DNA of 35,430 nucleotides. It comes from an uncultured Geobacter sp. (lineage in GTDB: Bacteria; Desulfobacterota; Desulfuromonadia; Geobacterales; Geobacteraceae). The stretch is from positions 1 through 35,430 of the forward strand of contig CAIWTU010000111.1 in assembly GCA_903915655.1 (NCBI GenBank). The letters are read 5' to 3'. Both the position numbers and the translations under genes were made by a program. Every line of letters begins with the position of its first letter. The stretch's first letter is position 1. The notes under the pieces are model-generated. The model saw nothing but the letters and a program-made list of their open reading frames with translations. It did no database searches and was not told the DNA's origin. This document shows, in pieces, positions 34,094 through 35,430 of this stretch.

Positions 34094-34483
34094 TTATTTT
34101 AAGGAGAGTACGTACGAGGTAAGGGCTTCCAAATCTTCCTGTGAATATAAATGCCCGACAGCCGACATACCGTTGAGACGCCCATTGCGGATACTCTCCA
34201 TTACCGCCTCACGGGTTCGGCCATATTTGTAGTCTGGTCGTTTCAAGGACGGCCCTTTCCTGCTTCCAAATCCGTTACCCTCACTGCCATGGCACGTGTG
34301 ACAGGCCCGGTGAAACAGTGAATAGCCGGTCGGTGCAGCCGTACTCGCTGTCCCGGAGGTTGTAGCAGGCATTTTGCCCGGTTGCGGCGTGCTGACGGCA
34401 GGTTACTCTTTTCCGGTGCAGCCTGCCACCACCCAGATCAGAAGAGCCGCCATACAGAATGACGTACAATTACGTTTTTTCAT
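34094..34483 (-). pseudogene. Lipoprotein c-type cytochrome with one in-frame stop
   Basis: From ATG 34483 the frame reads MKKRNCTSFCMAALLIWVVA then GCTGKE, a TAA at 34405-34403, and continues in the same frame as PAVSTPQPGKMPATTSG to the end at 34094. The first part is a lipoprotein signal (VVAGC lipobox); the second is a single-heme class I cytochrome with CHTCH, a GMSAVGHLYSQEDLEALTSY segment offering the axial Met, and the usual C-terminal helix. A single base change would restore about 129 codons. An internal restart at MPATTSG would lack the export signal and so could not mature as a cytochrome c. Most likely a recently inactivated electron carrier. Confidence 0.8.
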
Positions 34484-34545
34484 CACGTTGTCTCCGGTTC
34501 TGAGATGATTGATTTCATTACAGGTTCCCTTCTTAGTGCCTGACG

Positions 34546-34836
34546 TTATTGCCTGAAGCGGGCTCTGGCCGAATCAATAGCTTCACCGATGGCAGTCCTG
34601 GCTAGCTCGATGCCGGCTTTCAGGTCTTCCCAGGCGCTTTCCCCGGCCTGCTGAAGTTCCTGGATCTTCTGCCGCGCAGCTGCCTGTTTTGTCTTCAGTG
34701 ACGCAATCTGCTCGTTGTATTCACTCCTGACATCTGCCGATACTTCGCTGGCCTTGGCCGTAAGCGAGTCGATATCGGTGTTCCACTCTTCCAGTTTTGC
34801 CTGCATCTTTTGGATGTACTCGTCTCTGCTGCTCAT
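34546..34836 (-). CDS. Small coiled-coil protein, 96 residues
   Basis: A highly charged, fully helical protein starting MSSRDEYIQKMQAKLEEWNT and ending AIGEAIDSARARFRQ. Residues 8-90 show heptad-like spacing of Leu/Ile/Ala with the ASLKTKQAAARQKIQELQQA segment, so a coiled-coil rod is expected. There is no signal peptide or Cys. The length and composition recall small stress-linked coiled-coil proteins found beside HtpX, CsbD-like or sigma-factor genes in Geobacteraceae and other proteobacteria. ATG 34836 has GGAGA at good distance. It lies between the broken cytochrome gene and the mini-HtpX gene, all in the same direction. No function is assigned. Confidence 0.75.
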   Translation of the reverse strand: MSSRDEYIQKMQAKLEEWNTDIDSLTAKASEVSADVRSEYNEQIASLKTKQAAARQKIQELQQAGESAWEDLKAGIELARTAIGEAIDSARARFRQ

Positions 34837-34952
34837 AAACTGTCTCCTTTTTTGTGTGATAATTCCGGGTTATCTTCCTGTATTTAGATCAAAATGTCAA
34901 AACGATCTGCGTAGCATTAACCCCGCACAGCACGTTGTTATTGAAGGTCAGA

Positions 34953-35204
34953 TCAGATATCGCGCTTGAGGGCTGAGATGCGCTCTTCCAGAGGTGGGTG
35001 GGTCATGAACAGATTGGAGATAGCCAGCGAGATCAGGGAGCCGCCGAAGCCGAAGACCGCTGCGAAGAGGATCAAATTGGTGAGGTCGAGGCCCATTCCC
35101 TGCTCGTCCAGGATGCGGCCGACCCCCAGCAGGTTCAGCACAATGCCGAGCACAAAAACGATTGCCAGGTTGGTGATAAGAAACAGCATGATCCTCTTTA
35201 ACAT
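34953..35204 (-). CDS. htpX: Internally deleted HtpX (mini-HtpX), 83 residues
   Basis: The first 62 residues (MLKRIMLFLITNLAIVFVLG, then the second helix ending FGFGGSLISLAIS) match the N-terminal membrane hairpin of HtpX. The last 20 (LFMTHPPLEERISALKRDI) match its extreme C-terminus. About 200 residues in between are absent, including the HExxH zinc site and the remaining membrane helices, so it cannot be a protease. The join keeps the reading frame, and the AGGAGG site before ATG 35204 is strong. Either an in-frame deletion left a short membrane peptide, or it is a decayed gene that happens to remain open. A 17-base near-palindrome GGAGATAATTATTCTCC lies upstream at 35270-35286. Confidence 0.8.
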   Translation of the reverse strand: MLKRIMLFLITNLAIVFVLGIVLNLLGVGRILDEQGMGLDLTNLILFAAVFGFGGSLISLAISNLFMTHPPLEERISALKRDI

Positions 35205-35430
35205 GTATATCCTCCTCTTCTTAGGTAGTATTGGGGACCCCCTCCAGTTATTAAGTTATTGCTCGATAAGGAGATAATTATTCTCCCGCGCAACCATTTC
35301 TCCCCTTTCAACCGAATAACTAACGGCTGGCACGCTGATCCCTAGTTGTCTGGCTCATTCCGTATGGGAAACCCCCGACTCACGTGATACCCAATAACAA
35401 AACAAGCTCCTTCCCTTTACTTTGCTCTTC
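35205..35430. other. Non-coding end of window upstream of mini-HtpX
   Basis: No gene was recognised. The region holds the ribosome binding site of the mini-HtpX gene and a near-palindrome GGAGATAATTATTCTCC (35270-35286), 66 bases upstream of its ATG, which could be an operator. I could not identify a convincing sigma-70 or sigma-32 promoter. Confidence 0.4.

What the first reader, a model, noticed from the sequence alone, without database searches (positions are those of the whole stretch)
34953..35204. In-frame internally deleted HtpX retaining a strong ribosome binding site
The ORF joins the N-terminal membrane hairpin of HtpX to the last 20 residues of the family (LFMTHPPLEER...), missing the HExxH catalytic core. 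The frame is preserved and the AGGAGG site is intact. A membrane peptide that mimics part of a quality-control protease could be a dominant-negative regulator of a full HtpX elsewhere in the genome, or only a relic.
Basis: partly seen in the sequence, partly recalled or inferred. Interest (0 to 1): 0.6.

Follow-up and report, generated by a model that had tools for sequence, protein, structure and literature searches.

The report
Deleted HtpX remnant beside a transposon
A membrane-protease gene has lost its catalytic middle in one bacterial genome and lies at a contig edge next to a repeated, transposase-like element; it is most likely an ordinary gene relic.

Summary
Window 34953-35204 (- strand) encodes 83 residues: the first 64 of an E. 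coli-type HtpX joined in frame to the last 19, without the HExxH core. Against the commonest full-length form (295 aa) this is an in-frame loss of about 636 bases. AGGAGG lies 6 bases before the ATG. The regulator reading is not supported. The short form was seen once: in the class search the other 42 matches were long frames (37) or cut by a contig edge (5); 26 of 26 other phylum matches had long frames; 80 of 80 kept named loci reach a normal C-terminus with the core in place. A repeat, probably the 3' end of a transposase gene, begins about 11 bases upstream of AGGAGG and runs to the contig end, so no native upstream region is seen. The genome keeps two intact HtpX paralogs of another subgroup, which match only the peptide's tail in the search made. 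The retained codons carry no stop or frameshift, so the deletion is probably young; selection tests are too short to decide. Best reading: a recent deletion relic at a mobile-element edge. Misassembly at this contig end cannot be excluded without reads.

The parts
34953..35204 (-). 83-aa ORF, in-frame internally deleted htpX (E. coli type)
35013..35204 (-). codons 1-64: N-terminal membrane hairpin; codon 64 (AAT) is at the junction, where 102 of 102 aligned full-length homologs have Lys
   Evidence: 83% to L114 at 35013-35204; codons; column 64 is K in all others
34956..35012 (-). codons 65-83: C-terminal tail LFMTHPPLEERISALKRDI
35211..35216 (-). AGGAGG, ribosome-binding site, 6 bases before the ATG
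35227..35430 (-). right end of a repeated element, probably the 3' part of a transposase gene reading towards htpX; frame broken by TGA in this copy

Best explanation
This is a relic of an htpX gene. Shown: an in-frame loss of about 636 bases relative to the usual gene has removed the catalytic core, and a multi-copy repeat sits about 11 bases upstream of the ribosome-binding site. Inferred: the repeat is the end of a transposon whose insertion separated the gene from its own upstream region; the deletion arose by one illegitimate recombination event in this lineage, not long ago; two intact HtpX paralogs made the loss tolerable; and the gene is now drifting. If any peptide is made, for instance by read-through from the element, it would be a catalytically dead membrane hairpin that is probably degraded. 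The order of insertion and deletion is unknown.
For: Short form seen only here: class search, 37 of 42 other matches with open frames of 295 aa or more and 5 cut by contig edges; phylum sample, 26 of 26 others with frames of 294 aa or more; 80 of 80 kept named loci reach a normal length. Upstream repeat with 8 other copies at 96-99% identity. Two intact paralogs with HELAH. Nonsynonymous excess against the nearest relative, weak.
Against: No stop or frameshift within the retained 83 codons and an untouched ribosome-binding site. Retained residues look normal: 2 private residues of 80 columns, within the 0-3 range of the 103 rows. The nearest relative, G023, is itself cut by a contig end, so its state is unknown. 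The genus is represented by one other genome, which lacks the gene.
Confidence: 0.78

Rival explanations
1. Assembly artefact: the true gene is full-length, and the 636-base gap was created by the assembler near a contig end that stops inside a repeat.
For: The ORF starts 226 bases from the contig end and the contig ends in a multi-copy repeat. The form is a singleton.
Against: The gap is exactly in frame, and no loose htpX core or second E. coli-type copy was found elsewhere in the assembly. In relatives the two flanks of the gap share only a few bases, so there is no obvious long repeat for an assembler to collapse; the ancestral sequence of this genome is unknown.
Confidence: 0.13
2. A functional small membrane protein, for example a dominant-negative modulator of HtpX-type proteases.
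For: Frame and ribosome-binding site intact; two hydrophobic segments retained; conserved residues retained apart from the junction; intact HtpX paralogs exist as possible targets.
Against: Not seen in any other genome examined. No intact protease of the same subgroup found. The paralogs matched only the tail of the peptide. No promoter-like site found, though the scan is uninformative (0 found, 0.6 expected by chance). Nonsynonymous excess against G023, weakly controlled.
Confidence: 0.07

Closest known systems
Protease HtpX, E. coli type (NCBIfam NF003965 / PRK05457; peptidase family M48, Pfam PF01435)
   Same: Residues 1-64 and the last 19 align with full-length members.
   Different: About 212 codons with the HExxH core are missing; far below the NF003965 cut-off (70.8 of 245 bits) and below the PF01435 cut-off (18.7 of 20.3).
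Ordinary deletion pseudogene next to an insertion element (general knowledge, no call)
   Same: Truncated copy seen once, repeat adjacent, intact paralogs elsewhere.
   Different: The frame happens to be kept across the deletion and the ribosome-binding site is untouched.

Membership tests
HtpX protease (NF003965) | HExxH zinc-binding catalytic motif | tested here: not met
   absent from the 83 residues; present in 108 of 111 held homolog loci, 2 of the 3 others being cut short
HtpX protease (NF003965) | Score above the curated whole-protein cut-off | tested here: not met
   70.8 bits against 245; control L114 scores 441.7
HtpX protease (NF003965) | N-terminal membrane hairpin and C-terminal tail | tested here: met
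Y1 (REP-associated-like) transposase, for the upstream repeat | Y1_Tnp domain (PF01797) in the same protein | tested here: inconclusive
   The longest copy (209 aa, contig C108) starts at the contig's first base and has only a sub-threshold DnaA_C-like helix-turn-helix match; no copy was seen with its own Y1 domain. A 36%-identical stretch on C89 lies directly behind a Y1_Tnp match.
Functional small protein | Conservation of the short form in relatives | tested here: not met
Functional small protein | Expression of the peptide | not testable with these tools
   needs ribosome profiling or proteomics

The most novel reading that the evidence does not exclude
A catalytically dead HtpX hairpin, brought under read-through transcription from a transposase gene, was recently captured as a small membrane protein that modulates membrane-protein quality control in this one lineage.
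Probability: 0.05. Interest if true: 0.5.

Novelty: new member of a known kind. Interest (0 to 1): 0.12.

Why it matters
Mainly as a caution: an open frame with a good ribosome-binding site can still be a fresh relic, and the deciding facts (seen once, repeat immediately upstream, contig edge) lie outside the ORF. If the peptide were made, it would be a natural test of whether an HtpX hairpin without a protease domain has any effect.

Tried and rejected
Dominant-negative action on an HtpX of the same type: set aside because no intact copy of that subgroup was found in the genome.

Second short forms: four named loci (L037, L043, L047, L062) matched beyond residue 70 and looked like further short forms; reading them showed full-length proteins. 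Short frames at G023, G271, G275 and G182 (C224) run to contig ends; for G023 and G271 I read the frame to the end, for G275 and G182 I rely on coordinates and contig lengths. G182 C341 (279 aa) begins at base 5 of its contig.

Repeats at the deletion ends: the ancestral sequence is unknown. In relatives the flanks share only a few bases, so no long flanking repeat explains the deletion.

RNA element in the upstream repeat: one match with E up to 5 in the four loci, not in the repeat's window copy and far below its cut-off; none in the window at gathering threshold.

Selection test: pairwise counts on 43 codons were made without gap handling, so several low-divergence pairs with very high nonsynonymous values are probably misaligned. 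My comparison pool of 8 pairs (62 synonymous, 19 nonsynonymous; Fisher p 0.005 against 6 and 10) was picked by hand from the 36 pairs after seeing them. It leaves out pairs such as L073-L077 (10 and 11), L048-L099 (10.3 and 11.7) and L043-L137 (11 and 12) whose ratios come near that of the window pair. I treat it as weak. Of 9 residue differences with G023, the window's residue occurs among the 102 homologs in all 9 and G023's in 8, so they do not tell which lineage is relaxed.

Literature: three searches of the paper library (HtpX + truncated + membrane protease, 12 of 12 listed; HtpX + transmembrane + proteolytic activity + FtsH, 12 of 16 listed; HtpX + pseudogene, 15 of 29 listed). I saw listings and abstract beginnings only and read no paper; no listed title or abstract beginning describes a short HtpX of this kind.

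Not used: structure prediction, viral-contig scans.

Full report
What is there. The ORF at 34953-35204 on the - strand encodes 83 residues. Its first 64 residues are the N-terminal membrane hairpin of the E. coli-type HtpX: NF003965, E 1.2e-19, up to 84% identity with full-length relatives. Its last 19 are the family's C-terminal tail; the relative L114 aligns to the window in two pieces only, residues 1-64 and 274-293. HExxH is missing. In full-length homologs the spacing between ...SK and LFMTHPP is 204-215 codons, most often 212 (47 of 98; the DNA of 64 rows is), and 295 aa is the commonest length (31 of the 102 loci counted there). So 83 residues is what would remain of a 295-residue protein after an in-frame loss of 636 bases. 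Hydrophobic averages peak near residues 7-25 and 43-61.

The surroundings. The window is the whole of contig C111 (35,430 bases) of a genome of 3,362,580 bases in 171 contigs, listed as 100% complete and 1.66% contaminated. The ORF starts 226 bases from the contig end. AGGAGG is at 35211-35216. From about 35227 to 35430 the sequence is a repeat: 8 other places in the genome match parts of it over 56-207 bases at 96-99% identity; the copies on C118, C45 and C138 lie within two bases of a contig end. The eight aligned copies that reach it (window included) share the right end up to about ...CCCCAATACT and then diverge, which marks an element boundary about 11 bases upstream of AGGAGG. The repeat codes for the C-terminal part of a protein that reads towards htpX; the window copy and the C163 copy have a TGA inside. 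The longest copy gives 209 aa, open at the contig's first base, with a sub-threshold DnaA_C-like match. A 36%-identical stretch on contig C89 lies directly behind a Y1_Tnp domain (that copy has a stop inside). I infer a Y1-type transposase gene; this is not proven, because no copy was seen with its own Y1 domain. A scan of 34400-35430 found no sigma-70-like promoter, with 0.6 expected by chance, so it says little.

Other HtpX in the genome. Two intact HtpX paralogs of 286 and 285 aa with HELAH are on contigs C7 and C28; both pass the cut-off of NF002826, another HtpX model. They are 33% and 37% identical to L114 over residues 40-291 and 11-291, and only residues 60-80 of the short ORF matched them. 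A third M48 protein, on C12, follows a gene that looks like LemA (the LemA label is recalled). No second copy and no loose core of the E. coli-type gene was found.

Relatives. In the class, 39 of 277 genomes (this one included) have a match at E <= 1e-8. Of the 43 match rows 1 is the window, 37 have open frames of 295 aa or more, and 5 meet contig ends (G023; G182 C224 and C341; G271; G275). In the phylum sample 27 of 395 genomes match, and the 26 others have open frames of 294 aa or more (5 of these 26 genomes were also in the class search; their DNA was not read again). Of 111 held loci with the N-terminus (80 named and 31 unnamed, some the same record twice) 108 have HExxH, 1 (L073) is full-length with QEVAH, and 2, both unnamed, run off the locus; 80 of 80 named loci reach a normal C-terminus, one of them (L068) lacking its start at a contig edge. 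Plasmids (E <= 1e-5) and phages (E <= 0.01) gave no match. G001, the one same-genus genome seen, has no match at E <= 1e-8 and only distant M48 proteins. The short form was therefore seen once.

Selection. In 80 comparable columns against 102 distinct full-length homologs the window has 2 private residues, one of them at the junction; the 103 rows range from 0 to 3, median 0. It departs from one strongly conserved column, the junction Lys; the rows range from 0 to 4. Its terminal branch, 0.108, is the 78th shortest of 103 (median 0.056). Against the nearest relative by synonymous change, G023, there are 10 nonsynonymous and 6 synonymous differences over 43 codons. That leans to relaxed constraint on one of the two lineages, but the controls were hand-picked and the stretch is short. 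A young deletion fits these results; a long-standing function of the short form is neither shown nor needed.

Mechanism. Shown: the loss, the kept frame, the adjacent repeat, the intact paralogs. Inferred: transposon insertion upstream of the gene, illegitimate recombination within it, tolerance through the paralogs, decay. A misassembly at this repeat-ended contig remains possible (0.13). A functional peptide is possible but has little support (0.07).

Organism.

Noticed in passing
window 35227-35430; also contigs C163, C84, C108, C118, C13, C45, C91, C138 of G000: Right end of a multi-copy, probably transposase-encoding repeat with a small palindrome (GGAGAATAATTATCTCC) shortly before its end; at least three copies break contigs.
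   Followed up: partly
window 34546-34836, - strand; L138:1107-1391, L007:1005-1289, L043:6478-6762: A 96-aa protein of the sll1863 stress-response family (NF052504, E 1.8e-32) lies next to or near E. coli-type htpX in the window and in 3 of the 163 loci (62-78% identity; most loci have short flanks), in differing arrangements: a possible stress-gene neighbourhood.
   Followed up: partly
L073 (Gallionella MAG, JAUSAO010000125.1), htpX homolog: A full-length HtpX whose catalytic HExxH reads QEVAH; single MAG, so a sequencing error is possible.
   Followed up: no
class search: E. coli-type HtpX is patchy in this class: 39 of 277 genomes have a match, and in the window's family only G000, G023 and G029 are listed with one.
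   Followed up: no
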